In this document: positions 42,097 through 60,264 of the stretch, one piece after another
Layout: every line of letters begins with the position of its first letter
How positions within the stretch are numbered: the stretch's first letter is position 1
From: an uncultured Acidobacteriota bacterium
GTDB taxonomy: Bacteria > Acidobacteriota > CAIWXX01
Direction of reading: 5' to 3'
NCBI GenBank assembly: GCA_903916735.1
Contig: CAIWXX010000029.1
Location: 1-60,264, forward strand
DNA: 60,264 nucleotides
The notes under the pieces: generated by a model
Database searches by the model: none
What the model was told of the DNA's origin: nothing
Seen by the model: only the letters and a program-made list of their open reading frames with translations
Made by a program: the position numbers and the translations under genes

Positions 42097-42126
42097 TTGA
42101 TCCCTTAACGGAGACTCCTATATACT
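42097..42126 (+). promoter_or_regulatory. Candidate promoter of the large GT operon
   Basis: TTGATC at 42097-42102 and TATACT at 42121-42126 are 18 bases apart. The start would fall near 42133, only about five bases from the ATG at 42138, so the message would be almost leaderless. Confidence 0.35.
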
Positions 42127-42137
42127 CGATTCACATT

Positions 42138-44582
42138 ATGTGGATGAAACAGGATTCGTGGAAAATATCAGCATTGGCCGGACTCGGCGCCGCACTGATC
42201 GCTATTGTGTTCACCTCGGCCGGCTTTCATAGCGGATTTACGCCGGCTGATTCCTTTCTTGTGCTGGAGGCACGAGAGGGGTGGACGGGTTTTGCGACCC
42301 TCCTTCAGGCGCATCTCCCCGAGCAACCCTATTCGCCTCTGGCGATTGTTTCCCTCTGGATTGATGCCGCGCTTTGGCCATTATCGCCTGCCGGCTATTT
42401 TGCGCTGAATCTGCTCCTCCATGCTGTGAGTTGTGCGATGTTATTTCGCCTTCTATCCTCAATTGGATCAGCAGGGAGCAGGCTCGCCTGGCTCTCGGTT
42501 GGTTTCTTTTCCATCTCTCCGGCTGTGCTTCCATATTTGTTTCGTGTCGCGAGTCGTGGGCCGATTTTGTGTCTGCTTTTTCTTATGATCTCCATGTTGC
42601 TGTTCACTAGACTTTTCACGAAACAGCATGAACCTCTGGGCACTCTCCTTATCAGTGTGCTGTTTTTTGTTCTTGCGTTGCTCAGTTGTCCGTGGGCGCT
42701 TCTATTATTACCAGGTCTGATCGTTATTGTTGCCTTTGTCCGTAAGCGTACGATACTTCAGATCATTCCATTTTTAAGTGTCGCCTGTCTTTACATGTAT
42801 CTGTTTTTCGGACAACTGGGGGACGGAACATTTCGGACAGTGAGTGTGAATTCTCTGCAAAGCCTCCTCGCCTCGCTCATGCCGTTTCCTGCTGACTTGC
42901 CAAGGATCGATCTCAAGATTTTTCTCACATGTGCATATTTCATCGTGCTTGTGCTGGGGATCTGGAATGGCAGGATTCGCTCCTCGCTGATGATCCCTGG
43001 AGTTCTATGGTTTCTTCCGCTTTTCATGGCCCATCCTGGAAACGCGCCCGATTCGATCGGGCCGCCGCTTCAAGCCGTGTACATTTTCATACCGGGACTG
43101 GCGTGGATTCTGGGCAACTTATCGGACTCGGTTCTTCAGATTGATCGGCAGCAACTACGGACATTTGCCGGATTCGTCATTATCGGGATGACTGCGTGCT
43201 ATTTGAAACTCAGTTCAGCCAACGCTGTCGTCGGCTCAAGAAACAGCGACAGTCTGAGCATGCCGCTCAAACAATTAATGGAGCGGTATAGCTCTGAGAA
43301 GCTCCCGATTCAATTCATGGTGACCATGGACTTCAGCCAAGACCCGGTTTCCTATGTCAACCAATCTCGGCCTTATACTGATCTGCTCCTTCGTTGCCGG
43401 ATGAAACAACTTGATTCTCCTCCTTCTGTTCTGAGAACGCCGAGCCAGGGATTTCTTTGGGCACGGCGGGACTCCTTTGCTGGTGTCACTACCACTCCAG
43501 TGCCTCATACAAGGTTCCTTCAAGCTGAACTGGCAAATGGCGAACCCCTCCTCAAGCAGAAGGATACTCTCCTTCTCTGCGCCGAACCGGGTGCTATCTC
43601 GAAAATTGACTATCGTTCTGCATGGGATTTTCGTTCGAACATACAATTGCGTTATCCGGTTTGGGACGAGGATCTTTCCCAGTGGACGGCCTCTGATGCT
43701 CAGATCACGAGCGTTGATAAAGCAATACGAATCGTATGCGGCCATATTGATCCCTACCTAACCAGTCCAACATTCTATTGGCCGGCGCCGGCAGTTGAAC
43801 GATTGCGGATTAGGTTGGAGGTTGAGAAGCCGGGGGCCGACAGATGGATACGCCTCTATTGGGAGTCCTCTTCGCATCCAGGGGTTGCAGAAGAACGGGC
43901 TGTAAATATTGAGATCCCGGAATCAATGTGCCGTCTTGACGGCCGTCCAGCACCATATATCGATGTCTATCTCGCTTCTTATCTGCCCTGGGTGGCGAGT
44001 GGAATGATAAGCCGAATCAGGCTCGATCCGCCATCCGGTTCCACGTTAATCATTCGATCTATAGCCCTTCTACCCGGGGCGAATGAAGAGACGAAAGGGG
44101 AGCAGCGGGCGCTCCTTCTATGGACAAAAGAGCAGATCAATCAACTCACGCCTTACGGAATTGAACCGGATGCATCAACGCATTGCCTTCGCTCAAACAA
44201 TGATGATCCCAACATCTCCGGGACTGTCTCGATAGACCCGATGAGTTATGACAAGTTGCGAATCACTATGAGCGGGTCTGTGCCTGCCGGAGATGTCGTT
44301 CAGCAAATGGGACAACTGTACTGGAGCAGCACAGCACAACCCGGTTTCGAAGAGCAACGGAGACTCGATTTCCCTGTCATCCTGGATGGGCAGGATCGAG
44401 TTTACCTGATTAACATGCGACGGCACTGCTATTGGCTTAACGCCGATCAGATTACACGAATACGCATCGACCCAATGAACTCCCCAGGTTCGTGCTGCAT
44501 TCAACGTGTGGAACTTCTCGGGACTTCACCAGTGCCGGCAGGGCAACCGGCCATGAAGACCGAGGGGACCATTTCACACTAA
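42138..44582 (+). CDS. Large GT-C-like membrane protein with two tandem C-terminal beta domains
   Basis: 814 residues from ATG 42138 (MWMKQDSWKIS). Residues ~1-390 contain about 10-12 helices. The loop HSGFTPADSFLVLEAREGWTGF has the position of the catalytic first loop but only scattered acidic residues. The C-terminal half (~520-800) is soluble and has two related segments: LRIRLEVEKPGADRWIRLYW...RIRLDPPSGSTLIIRSIAL and LRITMSGSVPAGDVVQQMGQLYW...RIRIDPMNSPGSCCIQRVEL. These look like carbohydrate-binding beta-sandwiches. It is first of six co-directional genes, overlapping the next by one base (TAATG). The function is probably polyprenyl-linked sugar transfer. Confidence 0.68.
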   Translation: MWMKQDSWKISALAGLGAALIAIVFTSAGFHSGFTPADSFLVLEAREGWTGFATLLQAHLPEQPYSPLAIVSLWIDAALWPLSPAGYFALNLLLHAVSCAMLFRLLSSIGSAGSRLAWLSVGFFSISPAVLPYLFRVASRGPILCLLFLMISMLLFTRLFTKQHEPLGTLLISVLFFVLALLSCPWALLLLPGLIVIVAFVRKRTILQIIPFLSVACLYMYLFFGQLGDGTFRTVSVNSLQSLLASLMPFPADLPRIDLKIFLTCAYFIVLVLGIWNGRIRSSLMIPGVLWFLPLFMAHPGNAPDSIGPPLQAVYIFIPGLAWILGNLSDSVLQIDRQQLRTFAGFVIIGMTACYLKLSSANAVVGSRNSDSLSMPLKQLMERYSSEKLPIQFMVTMDFSQDPVSYVNQSRPYTDLLLRCRMKQLDSPPSVLRTPSQGFLWARRDSFAGVTTTPVPHTRFLQAELANGEPLLKQKDTLLLCAEPGAISKIDYRSAWDFRSNIQLRYPVWDEDLSQWTASDAQITSVDKAIRIVCGHIDPYLTSPTFYWPAPAVERLRIRLEVEKPGADRWIRLYWESSSHPGVAEERAVNIEIPESMCRLDGRPAPYIDVYLASYLPWVASGMISRIRLDPPSGSTLIIRSIALLPGANEETKGEQRALLLWTKEQINQLTPYGIEPDASTHCLRSNNDDPNISGTVSIDPMSYDKLRITMSGSVPAGDVVQQMGQLYWSSTAQPGFEEQRRLDFPVILDGQDRVYLINMRRHCYWLNADQITRIRIDPMNSPGSCCIQRVELLGTSPVPAGQPAMKTEGTISH

Positions 44583-47134
44583 TGTCCGAGCCATCCTCGC
44601 AGACTCAAAAAGGCGCGAACCGTCGCTCCATCTGTCTTCTGCTTCTGATCACAACAATCATCATCGTGAATTTGCTGCAGTGGAGGTGGATGACAAAGTA
44701 TCGTATCTGGGATCTTCCCCCCTCCTGGGACGCCGCCATGTATCACGCAAGGGCTCTCCAGTATTCAAATGTAATCCGTGAAAACGGATGGGCCGGGTTC
44801 TCCGAAGAGTTTAAGAATCCATCTCAGGCGCGGCCGCCATTGCTTGCGATCTCCACTCTCGCCTTCTATCCCGCCGGTCCATACCACCTCGAATTCGGCC
44901 ACATCATCGTGCTTTTGTATGTCGCCTTGCTGGTCATCATGACCTATTTCATAGCCGAACTACTCAGCGATCCCTATGGCGGCCTTTTCAGCGGACTCTA
45001 TCTGCTCTTCTTCCCAAGTATCATGAGCTATTCGAAAGAGTTCCTGAGCGACTTACCTGCTTGCGCATTTCTCAGCCTGTCAATGTACTGCCTCCTGCGG
45101 AGCAGGGACTTCAGGTTGATCAGATGGAACATCATGATGGGGGTCGGGATTGCCCTCGCCATGTACGCACGTAATTTCGCCGGCATCTATATTCTTTTTC
45201 CGTTGATCTACACACTCTTCCGCGGCTGGCGGGCCATGAAGTGGTCTGCTCTGGCACGGCTTCTGCCAGGTGTCATCGCAGCCATTCTCATCCTTTATCC
45301 ATGGTATATGCATCACCTTAGCACTCTGCTGAATTTCTACTCCAAATACATCGTCGGCAGTTTTGCCGGTCTCCAGAGAGAAGTCGAGATACTGGATTTC
45401 TTTTCACCAAGCGGAACGCAATGGCCACCCGTTTACTATCTCCGAGTCCTATTTTCCCAATCCATATCCGTCCTATTCGGAGCGCCCTTGCTGGGCATGT
45501 CAGTAATAGCATTTGTGAAGCGTGGACGGACTCTTCCGACCCCGGGCATAATGCACATCTGTCTATGGATCGCGAGCTCCTATTTTTTTGTATCCCTATC
45601 CACAAATCTCTCTTCTCTCTATTTGCTCGCGGCCCTACCACCCCTGGCAATTCTATTGGAACTACTTGCACACAAGCTGAACATTCAAAGCGCATTTCGC
45701 ACATACTCGACATTACCCATCATTGGACTTGGATGTTATTTTCTCTTTTCACTACCTCCTTTCGAAATTGCCAACACTCTCCGATGGGTCTACCGTGATC
45801 CGGCAGGTGCTCATTCCATCAACCCGGATTGGAAGATCGGGGAGATCCTCGAAACGGTTGGACGGCGGGCGAAATCTGCGAATCCCCACATCGGCATCGC
45901 CGGATCTCATCCCTTTTTTTCCAGTAACAGTTTCCGCTTCGAGATCGTGCGTCGTGGCTTGAACTATCCGGTGATCGATGTGGAGATGAACCAGGACAAT
46001 TTCATTCGAGAATTGCTTCTCAAGTCTGACTTCGTCATCACGAAAACTGGTGATCAATTCCCGTCGACCGCGAGCGTCCCACCCAGCCAACTGCAGAAAT
46101 TCTTTGATGGCCGTTTCTTACGCTATCAAAAGATTCCGATACTATTCCTACTTCCTGATAAATCTCAAGCCTTGCTGTTCCAGCATCTCCCCAACTCCCG
46201 TCTTCTGCAGAGTCCGGACCAAAGACCCTATTCCGGTCAAACCGTAATCAGTGCATCGGGTGATTTTCTAGGAGGGCTGATTAAACGGCAAGTATCGGCT
46301 GTTTTCGCCGACAAAATTGAGCTGATGGGCATGCAGATCGATCGGCATGACGGAAGATGGTTCGCGTATTATTTCTGGCATATATTGGAAAAGCTTGACC
46401 GGGAATACGGAGCCTTCGTACATTTCCTGGACGAAAAAGGGACCATCATCAAGCAAGGCGATTACCTGATGGGTGATGAATTTACCACTAAGAAATGGGA
46501 CCCCGGGGATTTTGTCGTCGATGGACGGTACCTCGGTGCTGACCTGCCACTTGACGGAATCACAACGATCGGGGTCGGCATCTGGACTCCAGCCACGAAA
46601 TCAGATTCTCTTAAAACGTCCATTTCAACATTGCCAACGGACTGGAATACGACTCGTGTTCTTCTGCCTATGAGGCTGGCAGGATTGATTCCGCCACGTG
46701 AAATACTGCCACCAACAGGGCGGGAAAAACTTCAAAAGGAGGTTAATTTTGGCGACCTTTTTATCCTGGCTTCCTGTGCAATCGATGACAATCCTGAGAG
46801 TCCGTCTCTCTGGTTAGTCTGGCGGTGCATTGGCCTTCCCTCGGCCGACTACCTTTTCTACGTCCATTTCACTGATGCAAATGGAAAGATTGTCTTCCAA
46901 GCAAATCATCAACTATTAGGCGGTGTCATGCCGGCTATCGGCTGCCGCCCGGGAGAGTGGATTTCTGAGCGATACCGTTTGCGACCGCCTCCCGGCACGG
47001 ACCTCTCAAGTCTCGATGTGCGTCTTGGGGTTAGAATTCAAGCGACTCCGCCAAGCCATCTCAAAATACTGGCTAATCAGTGCGAATCCGATTGGGGAGG
47101 AGTGCGGCTTGTACTTAGAGCCAACACGAAGTAA
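44582..47134 (+). CDS. GT39-like membrane glycosyltransferase with two tandem C-terminal domains (paralogue 1)
   Basis: 850 residues from the ATG that shares its A with the previous TAA. Residues ~1-440 hold about 11 helices; LPPSWDAAMYHARALQ carries the conserved acidic residue of the first loop, with YSKEFLSDLPACAFL after it. Two similar soluble domains follow at ~560-715 and ~718-850 (IELMGMQIDRHDGRWFAYYFWHI and FILASCAIDDNPESPSLWLVWR; then FVHFLDEKGTIIKQGDY and YVHFTDANGKIVFQANH). Each has an F-V/Y-HF-D..GKI pattern used in bacterial GT-C proteins. It would act on periplasmic glycan. The next gene is a full-length paralogue. Confidence 0.82.
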   Translation: MSEPSSQTQKGANRRSICLLLLITTIIIVNLLQWRWMTKYRIWDLPPSWDAAMYHARALQYSNVIRENGWAGFSEEFKNPSQARPPLLAISTLAFYPAGPYHLEFGHIIVLLYVALLVIMTYFIAELLSDPYGGLFSGLYLLFFPSIMSYSKEFLSDLPACAFLSLSMYCLLRSRDFRLIRWNIMMGVGIALAMYARNFAGIYILFPLIYTLFRGWRAMKWSALARLLPGVIAAILILYPWYMHHLSTLLNFYSKYIVGSFAGLQREVEILDFFSPSGTQWPPVYYLRVLFSQSISVLFGAPLLGMSVIAFVKRGRTLPTPGIMHICLWIASSYFFVSLSTNLSSLYLLAALPPLAILLELLAHKLNIQSAFRTYSTLPIIGLGCYFLFSLPPFEIANTLRWVYRDPAGAHSINPDWKIGEILETVGRRAKSANPHIGIAGSHPFFSSNSFRFEIVRRGLNYPVIDVEMNQDNFIRELLLKSDFVITKTGDQFPSTASVPPSQLQKFFDGRFLRYQKIPILFLLPDKSQALLFQHLPNSRLLQSPDQRPYSGQTVISASGDFLGGLIKRQVSAVFADKIELMGMQIDRHDGRWFAYYFWHILEKLDREYGAFVHFLDEKGTIIKQGDYLMGDEFTTKKWDPGDFVVDGRYLGADLPLDGITTIGVGIWTPATKSDSLKTSISTLPTDWNTTRVLLPMRLAGLIPPREILPPTGREKLQKEVNFGDLFILASCAIDDNPESPSLWLVWRCIGLPSADYLFYVHFTDANGKIVFQANHQLLGGVMPAIGCRPGEWISERYRLRPPPGTDLSSLDVRLGVRIQATPPSHLKILANQCESDWGGVRLVLRANTK

Positions 47135-47233
47135 TCGCTAAAATATCCGGCACATGGATAAACAAGGCCGCATGACGCTCGATTTCATTAGAAAAGGGTT
47201 TAATCCAGATGATCGCTTGACCGGGATCACGCA

Positions 47234-49819
47234 ATGACGATTCCATCCCAACACGAAGGCATGAAGCGCACAGCTATCCTCTTTGTCATCATAGTCATCG
47301 CGGTCGTTTCCGCACTGCAATGGCGTTGGCTGATGAACTACCGTATCTTTGATCTGCCTCCGAGTTGGGATCAAGCCAACTTTCACACAATGGCTGTCAC
47401 TTATTACAACGGCATCAAACTCGAAAAGTTCTCCGGATTCAAACGAATCTTCCTTGACCCAGCTCAAGAACGGCCTCAGTTACTTCCCATTTCGACTCTC
47501 CTTTTCTATTCATGCCGACCCTATCGAGTTGAATATGGCCACATCATCATTCTTGCCTTTTCTGCGCTTTATATCATCTCGACATATATTCTTGCGGCTG
47601 GGATGCTTAACCGGACAGCCGGTGTCTTCAGTGTTCTATACCTGACCTTTTTCCCGGCGACGCTGACCTATTCCCGTGAGTTTCTGGGTGATTTGCCGGC
47701 TGGAGCTTTTATCTGCCTTGCTATGCTCTGCCTCATACGGAGTGAATTTCTGTATCGAATCGGGTGGACAATTGGGTTTGCCGTTTCTCTTGGCCTAGCC
47801 ATGAACCTCCGCAATTTTGCCGGAGCCTACCTCCTGTTCCCTTTCATTTATGCACTCTATCGAGGTGCCCGGGAACACAGGATAAGAATTTTCCTCAGAA
47901 TCGCTCCCGCCGTGCTGATTGGAGCGGCATTGCTATATCCATGGTATTACTCACATATGGATGCGCTCACTTCCTTTTTCACAAAATATACATATGGTAG
48001 TTACGCCCGCATTCATCTTGATTCAACCAAATTCGATTTTTTCACACCATCCGGCCAGGATTGGCCGATTATTTTCAATTTGCGAATCCTTCTCGTTGCC
48101 GCGCCCTCTCTCTATTTTGGAGTTCTCATTATTGCGCTTTGTGTCATGCAGTGGAGGAGGAAGGGAGAAATCTTCACCGCAAGTGGAACCCACTCTGGCG
48201 GCATTTATCTTCTTCTTTGGGTAACCGGATCTTTGGTGATCCTCTCACTCATTTCAAATGTCAGCTATACCTACATGCCACCCGTGATGCCAGCAATGGC
48301 AATCGGGATCGAGTATTTGGCAGCACGGATCGGCCGGCAGGTCCCGGTCAGGATGTTCGCCACAATAACCGTCTTGGCTGTAGGAACGGCATATCTGCTG
48401 AACTTGCCGGCGGCCGAGACAGCAGGCACGATCCGCATGGTTTACAGGGGTGATGTTTCCGGCAGTCAAATCAACACAAACTGGAGAATTCCAGAAATTC
48501 TGGATGACATCCTGAAGAGAGACTCGAGAGAAGAGCTGATTATCGGCATCATCGGATCGCATCCATTTTTTTCTCAAAACGCGTTCAAGTTCGATGCATG
48601 TCTTCGCAGCCTGCCCATCGTGATCACCAATGCCGAATTGGCGCGCGATAGCGATATCAAGCAGTGTCTCTTAACATCTGACTACATCATTATCAAGACA
48701 GGATTCCAGGCCCCATCCTCTGCGGCGGTCACACTAGATCAATTGCACACCTACTTTAACGCGAGCTCCATGCGATATCACCCACTCCCGGCTTCTTTCA
48801 ATCTTCCCGATGGGTCGACAGCTTTCGTTTATCGGCATGCCCCTGCCTCACAAATTGTCCGAAGTGAAGAGACGTCCCCGACTCGATATAATAAACAAGT
48901 AGCCGTTTCGAATTCACTATTGAACGGTCTCCTGTTGAATCCGGTGGTGATTGATTTTGGAGGGCAGATTGAGCTCCTTGGGGCTTTTATGGAGGCCAGG
49001 GAAGAACGATTTTACTGCACATATTTCTGGCACTGTCTGAAAAAACCTGATGAGCGTTTAAAAGCATTCATTCATTTTATCGACCGAGATGGAAGGATCG
49101 TATCCCAGGGCGATTATTGGATTGGTGGAGATATTCCAACGACCGAGTGGAAGGCAGGCGACTATGTGACGGATGGCCGTTTTTTATTCAAACTAACAAG
49201 CCTTCAGGACGTATCGTCAATCGCCATAGGTCTCTGGCCGGCGGAAAGCGATGGGAATCGGCTTGTTGTGAAGTCTTCCACAGTGCCGACTGATGATAGC
49301 GGAACAAGGGCACTTGTACCAATCGAATTGACGGGATCAGTACCACCATCTGATATAACAGCCGGTGCCGGCAGGGAGTTCATCTCCCAGGGGATTAATT
49401 TTAACGATCTCTTCTTTATGACGTCGTGTACGATCGAGGATGAGAACGGAAGCGAGCCACGGATTCGATATATTTGGCGGTCGCTTGGGAAGCCGTCTCA
49501 GGATTATAAGCTCATTGCCTGCTTCACCGATCCGGACGGAAAGATCATTTTTATGGATCAACATTTTCTTTTAGACGGCAGGATTCCGGCATCCCAGATC
49601 AAACCCGGCGAATGGGTGTCCGAGTGTTATCGCTTGACCTTCGCTGCTCGCAGCAGGATGACCGATCTCGACATCAGGGTCGGCATACAACCAGTAAATG
49701 GAAGCGATCCCCCACTTCAAATCAATAACTTCGATGTTGAAAAAGACCAGTATGGAACCCGCATAATATTGAGGTACTCACGAAGCCGGTATGTTTCCGG
49801 CGAGTCGGGAGGCCGTTGA
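47234..49819 (+). CDS. GT39-like membrane glycosyltransferase with two tandem C-terminal domains (paralogue 2)
   Basis: 861 residues; ATG 47261 (MKRTAILF) is an alternative start. It aligns with paralogue 1 over the full length: LQWRWLMNYRIFDLPPSWDQ versus LQWRWMTKYRIWDLPPSWDA, then YSREFLGDLPAGAFI, LRNFAGAYLLFPFIY, LLYPWYYSHM and FDFFTPSGQDWP. Two C-terminal domains again show FIHFIDRDGRIVSQGDYW and ACFTDPDGKIIFMDQHF. The pair probably adds different sugars or linkages in one glycan, a functional split after duplication. It lies 99 bases after paralogue 1 on the same strand. Confidence 0.82.
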   Translation: MTIPSQHEGMKRTAILFVIIVIAVVSALQWRWLMNYRIFDLPPSWDQANFHTMAVTYYNGIKLEKFSGFKRIFLDPAQERPQLLPISTLLFYSCRPYRVEYGHIIILAFSALYIISTYILAAGMLNRTAGVFSVLYLTFFPATLTYSREFLGDLPAGAFICLAMLCLIRSEFLYRIGWTIGFAVSLGLAMNLRNFAGAYLLFPFIYALYRGAREHRIRIFLRIAPAVLIGAALLYPWYYSHMDALTSFFTKYTYGSYARIHLDSTKFDFFTPSGQDWPIIFNLRILLVAAPSLYFGVLIIALCVMQWRRKGEIFTASGTHSGGIYLLLWVTGSLVILSLISNVSYTYMPPVMPAMAIGIEYLAARIGRQVPVRMFATITVLAVGTAYLLNLPAAETAGTIRMVYRGDVSGSQINTNWRIPEILDDILKRDSREELIIGIIGSHPFFSQNAFKFDACLRSLPIVITNAELARDSDIKQCLLTSDYIIIKTGFQAPSSAAVTLDQLHTYFNASSMRYHPLPASFNLPDGSTAFVYRHAPASQIVRSEETSPTRYNKQVAVSNSLLNGLLLNPVVIDFGGQIELLGAFMEAREERFYCTYFWHCLKKPDERLKAFIHFIDRDGRIVSQGDYWIGGDIPTTEWKAGDYVTDGRFLFKLTSLQDVSSIAIGLWPAESDGNRLVVKSSTVPTDDSGTRALVPIELTGSVPPSDITAGAGREFISQGINFNDLFFMTSCTIEDENGSEPRIRYIWRSLGKPSQDYKLIACFTDPDGKIIFMDQHFLLDGRIPASQIKPGEWVSECYRLTFAARSRMTDLDIRVGIQPVNGSDPPLQINNFDVEKDQYGTRIILRYSRSRYVSGESGGR

Positions 49820-50003: not shown

Positions 50004-53000
50004 ATGAAAAACCTGAGGAAAGCGACGAAAGGGAGAGCCGGAAGAGCGCGCCTGCAGGAGAGTTACAGTCTCAACGCCGGCCGCGATATTCCTGATTTCG
50101 AGTCAATTTACCGATCCCTGGCTGCTGGTGGGGTGGCAAATATCGGCTTCACGGGCACAGACCTTTCCCTGCATCGTATCTTGCTGCAAGCCTCAAAGCA
50201 CCCTTGGCTAGCATCAATATCACATCGCGGTCAGAGCATTACTCTGACACTGAGGAAGGTGGGGTCACACTTCGCATTTGATGATGGCATGGCACACGGC
50301 GATGGTTGTCTTGTCTTTCCTGTCGCCAACCTTGGCCTCTACCTCATCAACCTCCACTATCCAGTGCGAGTCGCCTTTCGCCTTCGTATTAAAGAGGGCC
50401 GGCCGCTCGCCATTTCTTATCACGGGGGACAATTCGCCTTTTCGAGTCATGAGGCGGATGAGACATATATCGTTGTCACTGAGCCAGCCATGTTTTCTCC
50501 AGGCGGATATCCCATCACAATCCAAGCAGACCGGCCGGAAACTTGTATCATGACGGTCGATCTACTGACATCAATCCCAAATCCGGAGGATCCGCCCTTC
50601 ACCCTGCCACCAGACCAGTTCACACGTTTCCGCGCCGCAGCGGCCGCGGCAATTGTCATCAACGGAAAAGCGGCTCGCTTCCTGGATGTAGGCGCTGGTG
50701 ACGGGGCGTTATCCTGCTTCCTGCCCGATCTCATCTCATTCGACCGGCAGTTCCTCGACCGGCACAATCACATCATCGGATCCATTTTAGAGGATGAAAT
50801 TCCCGAGTGCGATGTCGCTCTTATGCTTGACGTTCTGGAGCATATTCCAAACCCCGAACGATCTCATGCACTCGATCGACTCGCTCAGGCTGCACAAAAA
50901 GGCGTCGTGATTTGCGCCCCTTTTAACTCACCGAACCGCGTCATGACTGAAAAGTATGTGGCGGCCAATTTCCGTCGTTTTTCGGGCTATGAGCATCAGT
51001 TCCTTGAGGAGCACCGGCTCAATGGACTGCCGGATTTAAAGGAAACCCTTGCCACGCTCGATCGCCTGCGCCTTCACACAGTGTTTTTCGGGTTCCATCC
51101 TCTGAATACATGGGCCTTCAGCATGGTCATCAGCAGTTTTCTGGACCGGGACCCACAATTTCAACCCCTTCGCGAAATATTTTTTCGCTTCATCAATCAG
51201 AATTTTACAATAAACGCACCGCGGATGGAGGACTGCTATGAAACCCTGATCATCGCCACCCGGGCACCTCTGGCGAAAAACATAGTCAGAAGCCTCAGAC
51301 AGAAGCTGGCCGCAGATCTCCGCCACAGGAAATCCCTCCCGCCTGAAACCCTGCCTCTCATCCTGGATACTCTAGTGCAGGGGAAATTGATCGAAAAAGA
51401 CGAATACATCCACTATCTCGAATCGGAAAAGGCGGCGGCGTATGCATCCCATGTCCCGCTTGAAGATCGCATCAAGGATCTTACAGCCGATCGGGACAAC
51501 TGGAGGAAATCCTCTCATGAAACGGAAACGGACCGACTTAACAAGATTGATCATATCAGGAACATCGAGCTTCACCTCATGGAAGCACAAAACCGGATTG
51601 GAGACCTCGAAGCCGACCATGAGAACCGAATCGCTCTTGAGAAGGATCTACAACAACGGATCGCCTCTCTGACAGGATCGTTGGAGAATACGGTCGTTCG
51701 CCATGAAGAGCGCACACAACATTTACATAATCTAGAAGAGGAGCTATTGCGGGCCCAATGCGAGTTGGATTCTCTCAGAGCCGACCATGAGAACCGAATC
51801 ACTCTTGAGAAGGATCTACAACAACGGATCGCCTCTCTGACAGGATCGTTGGAGAATACGGTCGTTCGTCATGAAGAGCTCACACAACATTTACATAATC
51901 TAGAAGAGGAGCTATTGCGGGCCCAATGCGAGTTGGATTCTCTCAGAGCCGACCAGGGAAACCGCATCAAGCAGGCCGAAGAGGAGAAGCGAATCCGCAC
52001 CGAACTTGAAATCGACCGTACCAATTGGCACACCTTATTCATGGAAACCGAATCGAATCGTAAATCGGTGGATGTACACGCCCGGAATCTCGAACATGAC
52101 CTCTTGGAAGCCCGATTTCGTTTACAGGCACAGGAAACCCAAACGAAGGAGATGATCAGGCGAATTGAGGATCAGGAGAGTGTTATTACACATGCGATGA
52201 GCCGAACGCATGAGCTGGAAGAGCACGCACAAAACCTGACCGGGGAACTGGTTCGAACACAGGCCGCCTCCGAATCTTTACAAAAAGATCAGATCAATCG
52301 CATTCAGCAGGAGCAATTTCAGATAGAACAGATGAAATCTGTGGAATTGGACCGAGATAATTGGAAGCAGCTCTGGGGAAAAAGCGAGTCGTACCGGAAC
52401 AACCTCCAGGAACACAACACCAACATCGAGAGGGATTTGGCCGATGCAAAAGCACGTCTGGTGTCACAGGAGGACTCAGTCCGGCATCTCATCGAGAGGC
52501 AGGGGGAGTTAACCGATCATGCTCAGAATCTGACCGCCGAGCTCACTCATGCCTCTGCGGAACTGCAAGCCTTGAGGAGCGATCATTCGAACCGCATCCA
52601 GCTGGAAAAACAGCTCAACAACTTGTTGAGCTCAGTCGAGGCGGATCGTGATAATTGGAAGATTCTTTGGGACCAGAGCGAAGCGCATCGAAACGAGCTC
52701 AAACGACACGTATCAAATCTGGAATCTAGAAACCTACAGTCCATAGCTGATCAGGAGGAACTCAGAAACATCAACGAGGCGCTCCGGCTTACCTTGCAAC
52801 AGAAAGAAGAGGAATTCCACATTCGACGGCAGGAACTGGAAGAGTCACTCAAAACTTTGCAAATAAAAAACGGTGAAACAGAACGCGAACAAATGGATGT
52901 TCGAATCCGAATGGAAACTCTTCAACGAGAGATGGCACACGAGTTGGAAGAATCGAACATTCTGAGGCGAGAGTCCGAGGATGCCATCCGGCGGCGGGAT

Positions 53001-54572
53001 GTCGAATTGGACGGAAAACAGAAGCATATCGACAACATCGAATCCCTCCTCCATGATATTTGGTCTTCACGAACCTGGAGCCTTTTGCGGGGCATCGACC
53101 GGCTTCTGGGGCGTGCTCCCGGCAAGGGTAAATCGCCATCCGGATCGGCGGATTCAGATGATCCATCCGGAAGCCGTCAGCCCTCTTCGACTCATCAACG
53201 TGGTCTCCGTATACTTCAGACTGTCCATTTCTTTCTCCCCCGCCATTATGCAGGCGTGGAGTTGTACACGTACTATCTGAGCAAACAACTTCAGCTTCGA
53301 AATGAGGTTCATCTTTTTTTTGCTGAACATAATCTCACGGTCCCACAATACACCGTCGTCGACGGCGAATACGACGGGATCCCCTATCGGGAAGTGACCA
53401 ATAATTTTCATTACAACAGTTTTGTTGAAACATATGAGAATGCGGCAATTAACCGGATTTTCGAGGGAATAATCGATGCATACAGACCGGATGTCATCCA
53501 TTTTGAACATCTGCTGAATCTGTCGCTCGGCATGATCGAGGTCGCGAAGAAACATGGGATTCCGACTGTTTACACACTCCATGACTTCTGGTTGACCTGT
53601 CCCTCCGGCGGGCAGCGGTTCCGCAAAGATCTCTCACGATGTGAAAACGTGGACGTGGCTGCATGCAGTGATTGTTTTCTAACATCGCCCTTCAATGCCG
53701 GCCGTCTGGAGAGGAAGACATTCGAAGTCGCACAAAAACTCGGCCCTGCTGCTGCCGGTGGAATCTATAAGGTCATGAATGCAATGCGCATCCATACGCC
53801 ATCAATTGCTGCCAAAGCCACATCCTCCTCAGCGGATTCGCCCTCTCTAGCTTCACAGATTGCCGATCGCCTCGTCCGGGTGCGCAAGATCACTGCTGAT
53901 GTCGACCTTTTCCTTGCCCCCTCCCAATTCATCGCCGATGTCTTTGCCGATTTCGGTGTGCCTCGAGATCACATCAAGCATTTACCCTATGGCCGGGAAG
54001 CCTTTCCAGTACATCCAAGAGAACGAAATGGTACCCTCAGAATCGGATTTGTCGGCACTCTCGCCCCCCACAAGGGTGTTCATGTACTCATTGAAGCCTG
54101 TCGGCTCCTGCCCGCAGGCCGTGTCAACATAAAAATTTTCGGTGAATTGACGATTGCACCCGATTACGTTAAAAGCATCCGAGCACAAGCAGAGGGCCTT
54201 CCCATCATATTCATGGGAAAAGCTGACAACACACAAATTGCCGATGTCTTTGCACAAATTGATGTTCTCGTCGTTCCGTCGATCTGGTGGGAGAATTCGC
54301 CCTTCACAATTTACGAGGCGTCGATCGCTCACGTAGCGATAATCGGGTCAGCCATCGGCGGAATCCCGGAACTTGTGAGACCGGGTCAGAACGGACTGCT
54401 CTTCACAGCCGGAGATCATTTTGATCTGGCTGAAAAACTCCGCCTGCTTCTTGACAACTGTGACATGCTGATCCGGCTTCAGCAGGGAGCTCCACCCATC
54501 AAGACGATTCAGGAGAACGCGATCGAACACGAGGCGATCTACCATTCCCTCATCACCGCACATCAAAGATAG
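50004..54572 (+). CDS. Methyltransferase / long coiled-coil / GT4 glycosyltransferase fusion
   Basis: 1522 residues with three parts. After ~210 beta-rich residues comes a methyltransferase-like domain (ARFLDVGAGDGALSCFL near 224, VALMLDVLEHIPNPERS near 270). Residues ~470-1020 are an almost unbroken coiled coil of Glu/Arg/Leu heptads. A Ser/Pro-rich linker leads to a GT4 domain (~1067-1520) with GFVGTLAPHKGVHVLIEA and the donor-binding NSPFTIYEASIAHVAIIGS. Landmarks (A/K/S)D(H/Q)xNRI in the coil are at nucleotides 51612, 51780, 51948, 52284 and 52578. The layout is analogous to WbdD, whose coil sets O-antigen length, but the enzymes at the ends differ, so the role as a ruler is inference. 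It sits among GT-C genes. Confidence 0.85.
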   Translation: MKNLRKATKGRAGRARLQESYSLNAGRDIPDFESIYRSLAAGGVANIGFTGTDLSLHRILLQASKHPWLASISHRGQSITLTLRKVGSHFAFDDGMAHGDGCLVFPVANLGLYLINLHYPVRVAFRLRIKEGRPLAISYHGGQFAFSSHEADETYIVVTEPAMFSPGGYPITIQADRPETCIMTVDLLTSIPNPEDPPFTLPPDQFTRFRAAAAAAIVINGKAARFLDVGAGDGALSCFLPDLISFDRQFLDRHNHIIGSILEDEIPECDVALMLDVLEHIPNPERSHALDRLAQAAQKGVVICAPFNSPNRVMTEKYVAANFRRFSGYEHQFLEEHRLNGLPDLKETLATLDRLRLHTVFFGFHPLNTWAFSMVISSFLDRDPQFQPLREIFFRFINQNFTINAPRMEDCYETLIIATRAPLAKNIVRSLRQKLAADLRHRKSLPPETLPLILDTLVQGKLIEKDEYIHYLESEKAAAYASHVPLEDRIKDLTADRDNWRKSSHETETDRLNKIDHIRNIELHLMEAQNRIGDLEADHENRIALEKDLQQRIASLTGSLENTVVRHEERTQHLHNLEEELLRAQCELDSLRADHENRITLEKDLQQRIASLTGSLENTVVRHEELTQHLHNLEEELLRAQCELDSLRADQGNRIKQAEEEKRIRTELEIDRTNWHTLFMETESNRKSVDVHARNLEHDLLEARFRLQAQETQTKEMIRRIEDQESVITHAMSRTHELEEHAQNLTGELVRTQAASESLQKDQINRIQQEQFQIEQMKSVELDRDNWKQLWGKSESYRNNLQEHNTNIERDLADAKARLVSQEDSVRHLIERQGELTDHAQNLTAELTHASAELQALRSDHSNRIQLEKQLNNLLSSVEADRDNWKILWDQSEAHRNELKRHVSNLESRNLQSIADQEELRNINEALRLTLQQKEEEFHIRRQELEESLKTLQIKNGETEREQMDVRIRMETLQREMAHELEESNILRRESEDAIRRRDVELDGKQKHIDNIESLLHDIWSSRTWSLLRGIDRLLGRAPGKGKSPSGSADSDDPSGSRQPSSTHQRGLRILQTVHFFLPRHYAGVELYTYYLSKQLQLRNEVHLFFAEHNLTVPQYTVVDGEYDGIPYREVTNNFHYNSFVETYENAAINRIFEGIIDAYRPDVIHFEHLLNLSLGMIEVAKKHGIPTVYTLHDFWLTCPSGGQRFRKDLSRCENVDVAACSDCFLTSPFNAGRLERKTFEVAQKLGPAAAGGIYKVMNAMRIHTPSIAAKATSSSADSPSLASQIADRLVRVRKITADVDLFLAPSQFIADVFADFGVPRDHIKHLPYGREAFPVHPRERNGTLRIGFVGTLAPHKGVHVLIEACRLLPAGRVNIKIFGELTIAPDYVKSIRAQAEGLPIIFMGKADNTQIADVFAQIDVLVVPSIWWENSPFTIYEASIAHVAIIGSAIGGIPELVRPGQNGLLFTAGDHFDLAEKLRLLLDNCDMLIRLQQGAPPIKTIQENAIEHEAIYHSLITAHQR
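51612..51947 (+). repeat. Tandem 168-bp duplication inside the coiled coil
   Basis: 51612-51779 and 51780-51947 are identical except for three bases, two of which change residues (Ala to Thr, Arg to Leu). Each copy encodes 56 residues, exactly eight heptads, so the duplication lengthens the coil without breaking its register. Confidence 0.97.
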
Positions 54573-54886: not shown

Positions 54887-56221
54887 GTGATCGCCGAATC
54901 ATCAACGGATACCAATAATAGTCATAAGTTCTCTCTATTGCACAATTCTATTCCTGAAACGACAGTTCATGCTTTGAGCGGCTGGACCCCGGTTTTCATC
55001 CTTATCATTGCACTACCGGTCATAGCTCTCTTCGCGACAATTATTCATTTCGGCGTCAATATACCTTACCAGGACGACTACAACGCGGTCTTCGATTTTC
55101 TGAACAGGTTCACATCAACAGCTGACTTGCAGGAGAAGGCAAGGCTCCTCTTTGATAACCACAACGAGCATCGCATTGCTTTCGCGCGCGTCATCATCTA
55201 TGGCTGTTACCGGGTCATGGGATTCATCGATTTCTGCCCTCTAATGCTGATAGGTGATCTTAGCATCATCGTCCTGATTTTTACATTGTACCGCGGTATG
55301 AGGATCACGGAAAGAAAGCTGTTCGCGTTTCTGCCGGTGACGTTCTTACTCTGCCAGCCACAGTACTACGAAGCTATCACATGGGCACAGGTTTCGTTAT
55401 CGAATCTCTGGGTCTATGCTCTTGTCTTTCTATCGTTCCAGTTCCTGACTCGGTCTCATTCCAAGCTCTCAGTGGGAACCGGCCTCGCTTTGGCGCTCAT
55501 CGCCACTTACACACACGGAAATGGCATGCTGAGTTTGTTCATCGGTTTCCTCTGCCTGTTCCAACAGAGGCAGGTCCGTACAGCTCTCATCTGGTTTGCG
55601 ATAATGGTTCCGGCGATCGGCCTGTATTTCCACAACTGGAATGGGCCACACGGAAATTACACAGTGACTCTTCAACACCCCATACAGGCGACACGGTTTT
55701 TCTTCGCCTTCATTGGGTCGACATTGGGCCACACATTCATCCCAGGTTTTTTATGTTTTGCTCTGTTCCTTCTGCTAACACTGACACGATACGATCGCAA
55801 GAATGCCGGGGTCTATTTCTCGCTCCTATTTCTCTTTGCTACAGCGGCTGTAGCGGCAGTCACCCGTTCGCACGAGTCAGTTGAGTACGCCGGCGTTTCT
55901 CGGTATCGATTCGTCTCGACATTGTTTCTCGTAACAACCTACATCGCGTGCATCGAATGGATTGGCCCGGTGTGGCGGAGGCGCCTTTGGATCCCGGCTT
56001 TCATCCTAGTTATTGTCTTCAATGTCCTCAGTTATTGGAGGAACATCCCGCAAATGCGAGAAGAGAGAGAGGCCAGGATCTGGAGCGTGGAAGAGTGGGC
56101 GCGCACAGGGAAGCCCGATCACCTGTTCCATAACATGGTGGAGGCCGCTAGCAGTATGATGTCGAAGTCAATCAACCGCGGGATTTATCGTTTCCCGAAG
56201 GAGCTCGTCCTTGGTGAATAA
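54887..56221 (+). CDS. GT-C-like polytopic membrane protein
   Basis: 444 residues from GTG 54887, about 10-11 helices. The first loop has VNIPYQDDYNAVFDFLNRF, an adjacent Asp pair as expected for a GT-C catalytic base, and DNHNEHRIAFARVIIYGCY, seen in membrane proteins of polysaccharide clusters. No large soluble domain is attached, unlike its neighbours. The substrate is unknown. The next gene begins 11 bases before its stop, so the two are coupled. The start is uncertain because its ribosome site is distant. Confidence 0.68.
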   Translation: MIAESSTDTNNSHKFSLLHNSIPETTVHALSGWTPVFILIIALPVIALFATIIHFGVNIPYQDDYNAVFDFLNRFTSTADLQEKARLLFDNHNEHRIAFARVIIYGCYRVMGFIDFCPLMLIGDLSIIVLIFTLYRGMRITERKLFAFLPVTFLLCQPQYYEAITWAQVSLSNLWVYALVFLSFQFLTRSHSKLSVGTGLALALIATYTHGNGMLSLFIGFLCLFQQRQVRTALIWFAIMVPAIGLYFHNWNGPHGNYTVTLQHPIQATRFFFAFIGSTLGHTFIPGFLCFALFLLLTLTRYDRKNAGVYFSLLFLFATAAVAAVTRSHESVEYAGVSRYRFVSTLFLVTTYIACIEWIGPVWRRRLWIPAFILVIVFNVLSYWRNIPQMREEREARIWSVEEWARTGKPDHLFHNMVEAASSMMSKSINRGIYRFPKELVLGE

Positions 56222-58199
56222 CCCGATGAACTGTGAATTGACGGTCGACCCACGATGCTCGGTGAAAAATGATGAATCAGGGCGCGAGGATCGTCTCTGG
56301 AACAGCCGGTCTATTTTGGTGGCGGGTGTGCTCGTTATGATCACACTTTTGCTTGCTTTGAAAAGCGGACCCAACATGCCTGTCGATGACGCGGCGATCG
56401 GATTCCGTTACATAGAACGATTCGTTTCAGGGCACGGATTGACCTACAACGATCATGAACATGTACAGGGATTTAGCTGCCCACTGTATATCCTGTTGCT
56501 CTCAGGGCTCCATTTCTGTGGGTTGGGAATTCAACAGGCATCCATAGGCATGGGGATCGTGTTTTATGTCCTATCTGTCTTACTTGTTTTCTATCTTGCC
56601 TTCCGGATCACCAACTTGCTCGGCGGTGGGATCGCAGGAGTGACAATTGCCTTGCAGTGGTTTTATCGGTATCAGATTCTCAGCGGAATGGAAGTAGGGT
56701 TTGCCGTATGTCTCGGCTTATCCTCCATCTGCGCACTCGAAAGGAAGCGGCACACGCTCGCCGGATTTCTGATCGGCTTAGCCATCATCAATAAACTAGA
56801 TGCCGGGCTCCTTGCCGCAGCATGCGCTCTTGCTGCGGTGATTGTGCTGCGGCGCATTCCCTGGCGCATGGTATGCATGTCCATCCTTACCGCTTCGGGC
56901 TGGTTCCTTTTTGCCCTCTATTATTACGGTTCAATTTTACCGCAATCCATCCGTGCCAAAATCCATCACTCGGGCTTTTTCGATCCCTGGTGGATCTACC
57001 ATCTGCTGCGAAATGATAAACGCTATATAACCGTCATTCTCGTCTTTCTAGGCTTGGCGTTCTTATGGAAATCCATGTCTCAAGGCCCTCGACTCGCCTC
57101 CCTCGCCTTGATGTTTTGGTTTCTCTTTCACGGTCTGACATACTCTCTCTTGAATCTCGGGGCTAATTATCCCTGGTACCTGACCGCCCTCTTCCCACCC
57201 TTGCAGATATTGGGCACCTCTGGAATTTTCTGCTTGTATCGACCCAACGCAGGCTCATTGAAATCGATCTCCTTCCTGCTCACAACAATCTTATTTCTTG
57301 CTTTTTATTTTCCCACAAGGCATGAATTTGACTGGACAATTAATGATCTTGTTACAGGTTCCCCGCTTCGCTCTTGGGAAGTGTTTGACATGGATCGAAG
57401 ACTTCTCGGGATTTTTCTCAACCAGTATGCCGATCAGCAGGAAGTCCTCATCTCAGGGTTTGGCTGGACTGATTATGAATCCCGGTTACCGATCCGGGAT
57501 GACTCCCTCATCAATTCACAAAAGCTGCAGGAGAACATCTCATATTTCATTGGATATAATGAACGGATCAATCCCTTTGAAAAGCCCGGCGGGCCAGACA
57601 GCTTCATCCAGGTGGCGACGTTTGATCTGGCCTATGAGATGTTCGGTGGTGAAAACAAATGGTTCGTGCTTTACGCCAAGACCACATCGGCGATCGTGTT
57701 GCGAGGGGCACGGTTTCTAAAATATGGGTTGCGAGATTTTCCCCGTCCCGAGGCTTACTCCTTGGAGCAGGGAGTGCAACACATACGCATCGACGGGGAT
57801 CATATGAATGCACCTCCTCCCTCAGGAGCCGTCTTCACAATGGGTCGGCTGGCCAGCCCCGTGCGTCTCAGCTTCATACCACGAACATCCGGCCAAGTAC
57901 GGTTCACAGTTCTTGTCAACGGTATGACAATTTTTGATGAAATACATACTGCTATTCAGCCATCTGTGCCTCTTATCATCCCTTTCACCTTACATGATGA
58001 TCGTACCTCGATTGCATTTTTGACGACATCCGACAAAGATGTCAATCAACCCCAGCCAGTTGCCCGATGGGAAAATATGCGGATATTAATCGGAGATTCC
58101 TGGCCCGATGTGGAACGGATCACCAATCCGGTTCTCAGAGAAGCATGGTGCCGGCGAAACCAATGCTTAACCGACACGGGAAACGAGTCTCCAAAGTGA
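56211..58199 (+). CDS. GT-C-like membrane glycosyltransferase, AftB-like first loop
   Basis: 662 residues from GTG 56211. MPVDDAAIGFRYIERFVSGHGLTYNDHEHVQGFSCPLYILLL matches the first loop of AftB-like arabinofuranosyltransferases and relatives: Asp-Asp, an RY..N/R pair, GHGL and G.S.PLY. About 10 helices end near 400. The remaining ~250 residues are soluble with a beta-rich tail (RLSFIPRTSGQVRFTVLVNGMTIFDE). It should use a polyprenyl-phosphate sugar on the outer face of the membrane, though arabinose is not implied. It is the last gene of the large operon before a degenerate stretch. Confidence 0.78.
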   Translation: MVNNPMNCELTVDPRCSVKNDESGREDRLWNSRSILVAGVLVMITLLLALKSGPNMPVDDAAIGFRYIERFVSGHGLTYNDHEHVQGFSCPLYILLLSGLHFCGLGIQQASIGMGIVFYVLSVLLVFYLAFRITNLLGGGIAGVTIALQWFYRYQILSGMEVGFAVCLGLSSICALERKRHTLAGFLIGLAIINKLDAGLLAAACALAAVIVLRRIPWRMVCMSILTASGWFLFALYYYGSILPQSIRAKIHHSGFFDPWWIYHLLRNDKRYITVILVFLGLAFLWKSMSQGPRLASLALMFWFLFHGLTYSLLNLGANYPWYLTALFPPLQILGTSGIFCLYRPNAGSLKSISFLLTTILFLAFYFPTRHEFDWTINDLVTGSPLRSWEVFDMDRRLLGIFLNQYADQQEVLISGFGWTDYESRLPIRDDSLINSQKLQENISYFIGYNERINPFEKPGGPDSFIQVATFDLAYEMFGGENKWFVLYAKTTSAIVLRGARFLKYGLRDFPRPEAYSLEQGVQHIRIDGDHMNAPPPSGAVFTMGRLASPVRLSFIPRTSGQVRFTVLVNGMTIFDEIHTAIQPSVPLIIPFTLHDDRTSIAFLTTSDKDVNQPQPVARWENMRILIGDSWPDVERITNPVLREAWCRRNQCLTDTGNESPK

Positions 58200-59076: not shown

Positions 59077-59724
59077 TCAACTCCACCGCGCCACAATTAG
59101 CAGATGAGGGTGTATATATCCCTGATCGATAGATTTGAACTGAACACTGAGTCCGGAATCTTCGTCCAGCCACCTGGAAATGATCTCCAGCGAAACATGA
59201 TGAATCCCCTGGCCGTATGTGAGACGGAGGACCTTCACCGACAAAAACTCCTGCATCTCATCCCAGGCGATTTTCATACGGCGCCGGGTGTCCATGCATT
59301 TGATCAGGAAGTGTCCCGTGGGATTCAGATGCCGGGCAAGGGCCCTCAGTAGATTGCGCTGATCATCCGGAGGCAGCAGGTAGAGTACGTCCACGACGGT
59401 GATGCCGTCGAAAAGTTCTTCTTCCTGTGGAAGGCACGGATTGCGGAATTCAAAAGATAGGTTTGTTAGAGCTGTCCCTTTTTGTGCGAACTGAACTTTA
59501 GCGGAGTCGGGCTCGATGCCGAGAATCCGGCGTTGAGGGGATTGGAGTGCCAGCATGCGCGCGAATATTCCTGAACCACTGCCGACATCGAGAATCCGGC
59601 CTTCCATAGGAACGGCGTCACAGATTTTTTCAAGCGGGCAGGTATGGCTCCTCATGTACAGATAGAAACGCTCGCTGATCGTCAGATTCGTGTATTGAGC
59701 GAGCGCCTTTTCTGTGAGCGTCAT
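59077..59724 (-). CDS. Class I SAM-dependent methyltransferase
   Basis: 215 residues. ILDVGSGSGIFARMLALQSPQRRILGIEPDSAKV gives motif I and II, with FDGITVVDVLYLLPPDDQRNLL and HFLIKCMDTRRRMK after. It looks like a small-molecule or polyprenyl-type methyltransferase; the substrate is unknown. Its ATG shares its A with the stop of the upstream radical SAM gene (TAATG), so they are translationally coupled and may act on the same compound. Confidence 0.85.
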   Translation of the reverse strand: MTLTEKALAQYTNLTISERFYLYMRSHTCPLEKICDAVPMEGRILDVGSGSGIFARMLALQSPQRRILGIEPDSAKVQFAQKGTALTNLSFEFRNPCLPQEEELFDGITVVDVLYLLPPDDQRNLLRALARHLNPTGHFLIKCMDTRRRMKIAWDEMQEFLSVKVLRLTYGQGIHHVSLEIISRWLDEDSGLSVQFKSIDQGYIHPHLLIVARWS

Positions 59725-60264
59725 TAGTTACTGAATAAGAGCGAATACGCTGTGCGACACTTTGAAAGTAGGTCCCGTGGCCCGCTGATCTTCGCGAGCC
59801 GACTCAGAAGGTAGTTCGGCCGGAGGTAAAAAGATCGAGTCGTTTTTTTCTGAAAAGCGCGGAGCTGTTCTTGTGTCAGGGCCTTGAGGCGCAGTGGGCT
59901 TCCCGTTGTGGAATCGAACACTGTTCGCGCCGGATCGAGATCGCCTGCTCGGATTGCCTCCTCTCGCATCGGCGTTCCCGGATCCGGAGTCGTAATTGAA
60001 AATGTGGCATAGTCACACGGCAATTGCAGAGCGAAATCGAGAGTCGCGTTCATCGATTCGGGAGTCTCACCCGTCAGTCCCAGCATGAAATAGGCCAGGG
60101 TCTCGATGCCATGCTTTCGGAGGAGCGCAAAAGCCTTCTTCGATTCTTCCAGGCCATGGCCTTTGTGATGCGCCGAGAGGAGTTCAGAGCTGCCTGTTTC
60201 GACTCCGATCATCATAAAGTGGCAACCCGCTCGTTTCGCGGCGATGATAATTTCTTCGTCGAGA
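59724..60264 (-). CDS. Radical SAM protein, C-terminal part (cut by the window edge)
   Basis: The frame runs through the right edge; about 179 residues are visible. CHFMMIGVETGSSELLS is the segment where radical SAM proteins of the B12-binding/Elp3-like class have GxESGSxxxL, followed by YFMLGLTGETPESMNATLDFAL and the TPDPGTPMREEA segment, all characteristic. The CxxxCxxC motif and any cobalamin domain lie beyond the window. It is coupled to the methyltransferase that follows it on the minus strand. Such pairs occur in lipid, glycan or natural-product pathways; which one cannot be said here. Confidence 0.85.
   Translation of the reverse strand, partial: LDEEIIIAAKRAGCHFMMIGVETGSSELLSAHHKGHGLEESKKAFALLRKHGIETLAYFMLGLTGETPESMNATLDFALQLPCDYATFSITTPDPGTPMREEAIRAGDLDPARTVFDSTTGSPLRLKALTQEQLRAFQKKTTRSFYLRPNYLLSRLAKISGPRDLLSKCRTAYSLLFSN

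What the first reader, a model, noticed from the sequence alone, without database searches (positions are those of the whole stretch)
50004..54572. A methyltransferase-coiled coil-GT4 fusion that may be a length-measuring device
Seen: one 1522-residue protein with a methyltransferase-like domain, ~550 residues of coiled coil, and a GT4 domain. Recurring landmarks (A/K/S)D(H/Q)xNRI are 56, 56, 112 and 98 residues apart, and DRxNW landmarks 175, 112 and 98 apart; every spacing is a multiple of seven. At 1.5 angstroms per residue the coil could span up to about 80 nm if continuous. Known: WbdD, a chain-terminating kinase-methyltransferase, uses a coiled coil as a ruler for O-antigen length. Here a transferase that extends chains and a methyltransferase that could cap them would sit in one polypeptide. 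That is inference.
Basis: partly seen in the sequence, partly recalled or inferred. Interest (0 to 1): 0.86.

Follow-up and report, generated by a model that had tools for sequence, protein, structure and literature searches.

The report
Sugar-chain capping enzyme with built-in ruler
An Acidobacteriota bacterium encodes one giant protein that holds a methyl-capping enzyme and a sugar-adding enzyme about 80 nm apart on a repeat-built coiled-coil rod, most likely to set the length of a surface sugar chain; the design is known from Klebsiella and E. coli, but this is a new and unusually long version of it.

Summary
Landmark spacings are as reported; one heptad register predominates from 455 to ~961. 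The 56/56 spacing comes from a 97%-identical 168-bp tandem duplication (8 heptads). The only other genome held of its class has an orthologue (41%) whose start codon overlaps wzt in a wzm-wzt(CBM)-fusion-GT2-GT4-GT2 operon; the window organism has that operon on another contig, without the fusion. Relatives of the methyltransferase lie within 10 kb of wzm/wzt in 7 of 17 fetched loci, against 2 of 39 PF00534 loci of the own genome. This is the setting of the known coiled-coil chain terminators (WbdD, WbbB, Klebsiella O7 ORF6); O7 ORF6 already joins methyltransferase, coil and glycosyltransferases in one chain. New: a GT4 version without kinase, a coil about four times WbdD's spacing, and visible in-register coil growth. 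Whether coil length tracks glycan length could not be tested. New variant of a known kind.

The parts
50004..54572 (+). Gene for the 1522-aa methyltransferase - coiled coil - GT4 protein
   Evidence: orthologue L015:3837-8234, 41% identity over 1536 aligned positions
50205..50573 (+). All-beta domain, residues ~68-190, about a dozen strands; possibly carbohydrate-binding (inferred)
   Evidence: AlphaFold2 model, secondary structure; fold not searched on its own
50595..51278 (+). Class I SAM-dependent methyltransferase domain, residues 198-425 (LDVGAGDG, D247, DVLEHIP, family motif EHxxxGLPD)
   Evidence: Z 15.3 to 4qdk/9fce/9fcq; Z 14.6 to CgnL 7pd7; profile hits RebM 3bus and AtmM 6uv6, sugar O-methyltransferases
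51456..53066 (+). Long helical coil, residues 485-1021 (537 residues, ~80 nm if straight), possible break at 683-690
   Evidence: AlphaFold2, heptad register and periodicity
51606..51773 (+). Tandem repeat copy 1, 168 bp = 56 residues = 8 heptads
51774..51941 (+). Tandem repeat copy 2, 97% identical; a third partial copy of 27 bp follows (51942-51968, 78%)
   Evidence: four codons differ, one of them synonymously
53067..53123 (+). Amphipathic segment at the end of the coil, residues 1022-1040 (SRTWSLLRGIDRLLGRAPG), probable membrane anchor
   Evidence: 79% conserved in the orthologue; hydrophobic moment 0.60 against mean 0.23 and maximum 0.53 in the coil; similar tails end the coils of the G218 and G061 relatives
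53202..54548 (+). GT4 glycosyltransferase domain, residues 1067-1515, with E-x7-E (1430-1438)
   Evidence: 84.5 bits; 61% identical in the orthologue
47234..49819 (+). Upstream neighbour, 861 aa, GT-C type membrane protein (PMT_2); similar large membrane proteins at 44492-47134 (PMT_2) and 42075-44582 (no Pfam hit). Part of the system only if the gene serves a local pathway
   Evidence: relation to the pathway unknown

Best explanation
It is a coiled-coil chain terminator of the WbdD / WbbB / Klebsiella O7 ORF6 design, for a polysaccharide exported by a Wzm/Wzt ABC transporter. The amphipathic segment at residues 1022-1040 anchors the C-terminal end of the coil at the inner membrane, where the fused GT4 domain (with separately encoded GT2/GT4 enzymes) lengthens a lipid-linked glycan. 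The coil, probably a parallel dimer or trimer, holds the methyltransferase up to ~80 nm away. When the growing end becomes long enough to reach it, the methyltransferase methylates the terminal sugar, which stops growth and makes the mark that the Wzt carbohydrate-binding domain recognises for export. Coil length would then set chain length, and tandem duplications in whole heptads would change it. Shown: domains, fold, helix continuity, heptad register, duplication, operon with wzm/wzt in the orthologue. Inferred: membrane anchoring, oligomer, capping, chain extension by this GT4, ruler function.
For: Same module order as the known terminators: capping enzyme at the distal end, coil, GT module at the membrane end (design described in PMC11231755). 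Methyltransferase fold match to CgnL 7pd7 (Z 14.6), reported as the best match of the O7 ORF6 methyltransferase (PMC11231755), and profile matches to the sugar O-methyltransferases RebM and AtmM; RebM is also a close structure to WbdD's methyltransferase (PMC3482155). The orthologue in the only other genome held of the class starts inside the end of wzt (19-nt overlap) in wzm-wzt(Wzt_C 90 bits)-fusion-GT2-GT4-GT2. The window organism has the orthologous wzm-wzt-GT2-GT4-GT2 operon (66, 70, 66, 66, 46% identity) on contig C95 without the fusion, with GT2 starting at the very place where the fusion starts in the relative, and with no long coil or methyltransferase of this family beside it; the fusion is the only member of the family in the genome. 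wzm/wzt lie within 10 kb of the family's methyltransferase gene in 7 of 17 relatives (5 of 11 genera with long enough contigs) against 2 of 39 PF00534 loci of the own genome (Fisher p 0.002 and 0.004). The G218 and G061 relatives are methyltransferase-coil-amphipathic tail without GT, as WbdD. Between the orthologues the catalytic domains align almost without gaps and nearly all indels fall in the coil.
Against: In the window organism the gene is not in the wzm/wzt operon, and no ABC exporter was found among the genes of these 60 kb that were scanned; its neighbours are GT-C type membrane proteins. One genome with the operon arrangement is one observation. No kinase, so not the methyl-phosphate cap of O9a/O7 (E. 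coli O8 WbdD also lacks the kinase, PMC3482155). The Wzt_C domain is known only by family, not by ligand. The coil model was made as a monomer from two sequences and has low confidence at about 682-692 and 847-855. The co-location test uses loci that are partly from one genus and a control from one genome.
Confidence: 0.6

Rival explanations
1. The coil is a tether or scaffold, not a ruler: it oligomerises the protein and docks partner glycosyltransferases in a membrane complex, and its length drifts by tandem duplication without a strict link to glycan length. The methyltransferase still modifies the glycan.
For: Conserved landmark motifs along the coil (DRxNW, HxxNIE, DHxNRI), shared with the orthologue though lengths differ, look like repeated binding or packing sites; coil length differs between the two orthologues (524 and 458 residues from first DRDNW to WSSRTW).
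Against: The register and helix are kept over ~500 residues, and the recent duplication seen is in whole heptads, as expected if a straight rod is selected; in the characterised systems with this design the coil is a ruler or the marker of one (PMC11231755, PMC5082667).
Confidence: 0.22
2. The protein serves a different pathway in the window organism: with the GT-C membrane proteins beside it (42075-49819 and 54887-58199) it makes or O-methylates a lipid-linked sugar or oligosaccharide for a periplasmic transfer route, and its link to the ABC exporter is lost or was never general.
For: The gene follows three large membrane proteins on the same strand (two with a GT-C type PMT_2 domain), two more membrane proteins follow it, and wzm/wzt are on another contig. 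A Wzx-type flippase gene lies in the window at 22615-24090.
Against: The orthologous fusion overlaps wzt in the relative, and the neighbours of the window gene have no counterpart beside it there. The gaps of about 185 bp before the gene and 315 bp after it do not argue for one tight operon.
Confidence: 0.15
3. The methyltransferase domain is degenerate or structural (a glycan-binding or dimerisation platform), and only the GT4 works.
For: Pfam scores stay below the curated cut-offs (20.3 of 27 bits); the GT4 domain is more conserved (61%) than the methyltransferase (46%).
Against: Motif I, the acidic residue after strand 2 (D247), D276 and the EHxxxGLP motif are kept across 19 diverse relatives with few exceptions; the model matches SAM-bound enzymes at Z 15.
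Confidence: 0.03

Closest known systems
Klebsiella pneumoniae O7 ORF6 (PMC11231755)
   Same: One polypeptide with N-terminal methyltransferase, a beta domain (CBM-like in ORF6), a central coil and C-terminal glycosyltransferase; gene in a wzm/wzt cluster (here in the orthologue); methyltransferase model matches CgnL in both.
   Different: ORF6 has a kinase and two GT2 modules; here no kinase and one GT4. The beta domain precedes the methyltransferase here. ORF6 activity is shown in vitro; here none is. Sequences were not compared: ORF6 was in no collection searched.
Escherichia coli O9a / O8 WbdD (PMC3482155, PMC5082667)
   Same: Methyltransferase held away from the membrane by a coiled coil with a membrane-binding C-terminal end; ABC-exported glycan; the O8 form methylates the sugar directly without a kinase.
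   Different: WbdD carries no glycosyltransferase and spaces its enzymes ~20 nm from the membrane (PMC5082667); here GT4 is fused and the coil could span ~80 nm.
Raoultella terrigena / Klebsiella O12 WbbB (PMC11231755, PMC9587256)
   Same: Terminator, ruler and polymerase modules in one polypeptide.
   Different: WbbB terminates with a Kdo transferase (GT99), not a methyltransferase, and has GT102/GT103 modules.
ROCK2 kinase coil (PMC5082667, PMC4686654)
   Same: Very long parallel coil (107 nm) that places catalytic domains at a set distance from a membrane end.
   Different: Eukaryotic kinase; analogy only, no relation claimed.

Membership tests
Coiled-coil chain terminators of ABC transporter-dependent glycans (WbdD/WbbB/O7 ORF6 design) | Capping-type catalytic domain at the distal (N-terminal) end of the coil | tested here: met
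   Class I methyltransferase at 198-425, coil from ~455; capping activity itself not tested
Coiled-coil chain terminators of ABC transporter-dependent glycans (WbdD/WbbB/O7 ORF6 design) | Extended continuous coiled coil | tested here: met
   Helices 485-682 and 691-1021, one predominant register 455-961; oligomer not tested
Coiled-coil chain terminators of ABC transporter-dependent glycans (WbdD/WbbB/O7 ORF6 design) | Membrane-associated amphipathic helix at the end of the coil | tested here: inconclusive
   Residues 1022-1040 are amphipathic and 79% conserved; membrane binding not testable
Coiled-coil chain terminators of ABC transporter-dependent glycans (WbdD/WbbB/O7 ORF6 design) | Encoded with wzm and a CBM-bearing wzt | tested here: inconclusive
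   Met in the orthologue; in the window organism the matching wzm/wzt are on another contig
Coiled-coil chain terminators of ABC transporter-dependent glycans (WbdD/WbbB/O7 ORF6 design) | Modification of the non-reducing end and coil-dependent chain length | not testable with these tools
   No glycan data exist for any carrier
WbdD of the O9a type (kinase-methyltransferase) | Kinase domain between methyltransferase and coil | tested here: not met
   No kinase family in Pfam or NCBIfam scans; residues 425-485 are helix leading into the coil
Class I SAM-dependent methyltransferases | Rossmann-like fold with glycine-rich motif I and acidic residue after strand 2 | tested here: met
   LDVGAGDG and D247 conserved; Z 15.3
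Class I SAM-dependent methyltransferases | Curated Pfam cut-off of a methyltransferase family | tested here: not met
   PF13489 20.3 bits, cut-off 27; the relative L076 does pass PF08241 (34.4 bits, cut-off 21.2), so the domain is divergent rather than something else
GT4 retaining glycosyltransferases | Pfam GT4 domains over cut-off and E-x7-E motif | tested here: met
   PF00534 84.5 bits, PF13439 61.9 bits; E1430-E1438

The most novel reading that the evidence does not exclude
A ruler whose length is set by tandem duplication of 56-residue, eight-heptad blocks: an ~80-nm single-polypeptide extender-capper device that works in trans for an exporter encoded elsewhere, and whose relatives (coils from about 60 to 580 residues on related methyltransferases) form a natural series in which coil length predicts glycan length.
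Probability: 0.25. Interest if true: 0.75.

Novelty: new variant of a known kind. Interest (0 to 1): 0.55.

Why it matters
How bacteria set the length of surface sugar chains has been worked out in a few enterobacterial O-antigens. This protein points to the same device in an almost unstudied class of Acidobacteriota, in a minimal form (one methyltransferase, one coil, one GT4), with a much longer coil and with a recent, in-register duplication that shows how a ruler can be lengthened. The related methyltransferases with coils of very different lengths, several beside wzm/wzt genes, make the rule 'coil length sets chain length' testable across natural variants.

Tried and rejected
A scan of the genome collection with the single protein found nothing; a second with the two-sequence profile gave the orthologue, one split relative and many lone GT4 proteins; only the best 80 of 484 related stretches could be kept, so absence elsewhere is not shown. 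PDB search with the single N-terminal sequence gave nothing and with the bare methyltransferase only noise; the 19-sequence profile worked. The WbdD structures do not appear in the 50 rows shown by the structure comparison, which says nothing either way. The idea that multiples of seven are a code was set aside: they follow from an unbroken heptad coil, and the orthologue breaks the rule once. The 1092-aa gene beside the C3 wzm/wzt pair was checked as a possible second terminator and is a TRCF/Mfd-type repair protein. G218 was checked for a polymerase: a 1406-aa GATase-Asn synthase-GT2-GT4 protein lies next to its methyltransferase-coil gene. Defence-system models: no match. Hagelueken 2015 on the WbdD ruler is not in the library; its result is taken from the review PMC5082667.

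Full report
What is there. The open reading frame 50004-54572 (+) encodes 1522 residues. Pfam finds a clear GT4 glycosyltransferase at the C-terminus (84.5 bits) and only a sub-threshold methyltransferase near the N-terminus (20.3 bits, cut-off 27). An AlphaFold2 model of residues 1-489 built on 19 relatives (pLDDT 84) shows an all-beta domain (about 68-190) and a class I methyltransferase (198-425); the latter matches SAM-bound enzymes at Z 15.3, and CgnL at 14.6. A profile of the family finds RebM and AtmM, which methylate sugar hydroxyls, as best solved relatives. Residues 440-1060 model as a helix from 485 to 682, a low-confidence break, a helix from 691 to 1021 and a short helix 1023-1035. 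The GT4 E-x7-E motif is intact.

The coil. The hydrophobic pattern has a significant 3.5-residue period and one phase from 455 to about 961, with short excursions, and shifts after that. So the multiples of seven are the signature of an unbroken heptad coil built from repeated modules (roughly DRxNW-ExxR-HxxNIE-DHxNRI), not a separate code. Part of it is recent: 51606-51773 and 51774-51941 are a 168-bp tandem duplication, 97% identical, exactly 8 heptads. A module of this coil is found nowhere else in the own genome or in 58 sampled relatives, except in the orthologue. The stretch 485-1021 would be about 80 nm long if straight (0.15 nm per residue, arithmetic). For comparison WbdD holds its enzymes about 20 nm from the membrane (PMC5082667).

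Relatives. The class to which this organism belongs has two genomes in the collection, and both have the fusion. The second, G001, is the Acidobacteria MAG with contig JACPPM010000341.1. Its orthologue is 41% identical over the whole length: GT4 61%, methyltransferase 46%, N-terminal domain 33%, coil 35%, and the amphipathic segment after the coil 79%. The catalytic domains align almost without gaps; nearly all insertions and deletions are in the coil, mostly in its middle. Among 394 further genomes of the phylum no other methyltransferase - long coil - GT4 protein was found, but the methyltransferase family is present with strong scores in 16 of them, in other settings: two methyltransferases in tandem around the beta domain, methyltransferase-coil-amphipathic tail (G061, G218), methyltransferase-short coil-GT2-GT2 (G025). 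In a deltaproteobacterial MAG (L076) a methyltransferase-short coil gene is followed after about 8 bases by a gene for a close lone GT4.

Context. In G001 the order is wzm (PF01061, 68 bits), wzt with the Wzt C-terminal carbohydrate-binding domain (PF14524, 90 bits), the fusion, GT2, GT4, GT2; the fusion's first in-frame ATG lies 19 nt inside the end of wzt. The window organism has the orthologous operon on contig C95 (66, 70, 66, 66 and 46% identity) without the fusion; there GT2 overlaps wzt by the same 19 nt. No other member of the methyltransferase family was found in its genome, and none of the genes near the C95 exporter has a long coil. So the fusion has either moved out of the operon here or into it there, and could serve the C95 exporter in trans (inference). 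Over the family, wzm/wzt lie within 10 kb in 7 of 17 relatives that were fetched with strong scores, against 2 of 39 PF00534 glycosyltransferase loci in the own genome (p 0.002; by genus 5 of 11, p 0.004). Several contigs are short, so the first number is a lower bound; the control comes from one genome only. wzt and the methyltransferase gene are direct neighbours in G001, G218 and G263.

Mechanism. In ABC transporter-dependent pathways, glycans are finished on a lipid at the cytosolic face, a terminator modifies the non-reducing end, and the Wzt carbohydrate-binding domain admits only terminated chains; the terminator sits at the far end of a coil whose length sets chain length, and the polymerase at the membrane end (PMC11231755, PMC5082667). 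The protein here has each of these parts in that order. I therefore read it as a methyl-capping terminator with a built-in ruler and one polymerase (or primer) module. Shown: parts, order, fold, helix, duplication, operon in the relative. Inferred: cap, anchor, oligomer, ruler, in-trans action. Without a kinase, the cap would be an O-methyl sugar as in E. coli O8 (PMC3482155), not a methyl phosphate.

Known or new. Capping enzyme, ruler and polymerase in one chain are known from WbbB (O12) and Klebsiella O7 ORF6 (PMC11231755); the latter has the same order methyltransferase - coil - glycosyltransferase. New here are the GT4, the lack of a kinase in a fused form, the phylum, the length of the coil, and the traces of its growth by whole heptads. 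That is a new variant of a known kind. The strongest open claim, that coil length predicts glycan length over these natural variants, is untested.

Limits. The genomes used here are largely metagenome assemblies or drafts; the number of 168-bp units may be under-counted in assembly. The coil model is a monomer from two sequences. Other phyla were covered only by one pattern-limited scan.

Noticed in passing
G000:C95:6674-11991 (L068): wzm-wzt-GT2-GT4-GT2 operon, orthologous to the one that holds the fusion in G001, with the fusion cleanly absent between wzt and GT2 (same 19-nt overlap).
   Followed up: yes
L162:6963-15311 (G218): wzm, wzt, methyltransferase-coil (~190 residues)-amphipathic tail, then a 1406-aa protein with glutamine amidotransferase, asparagine synthase, GT2 and GT4 domains: an odd fusion beside a WbdD-like terminator.
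   Followed up: partly
L018, L155, L157, L016, L073, L074, L158, L159: A family of ~700-aa proteins in Acidobacteriota with two methyltransferase domains around a beta domain and a basic C-terminal helix, in some cases beside wzm/wzt.
   Followed up: partly
window:42075-49819 and 54887-58199: Three large membrane proteins (835, 880, 861 aa; two with a GT-C type PMT_2 domain) before the gene and two membrane proteins (444, 662 aa) without Pfam match after it, all on one strand.
   Followed up: partly
window:39247-41826 (-): Family B DNA polymerase, 75% identical to the one near the fusion in G001, although the genes between are different.
   Followed up: partly
window:17908-20442 (+): 844-aa protein with several divergent InlB B-repeat domains (PF18998).
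   Followed up: no
window:12157-13895 (-) and 13750-15501 (-): Two overlapping neighbouring methyltransferase genes with the same Pfam profile, next to a carbamoyltransferase.
   Followed up: no
window:20519-22129 (-) and 59724-60215 (-): B12-binding radical SAM protein, and at the contig end a truncated radical SAM gene closest to HpnJ/BchE-type families, beside a methyltransferase.
   Followed up: no
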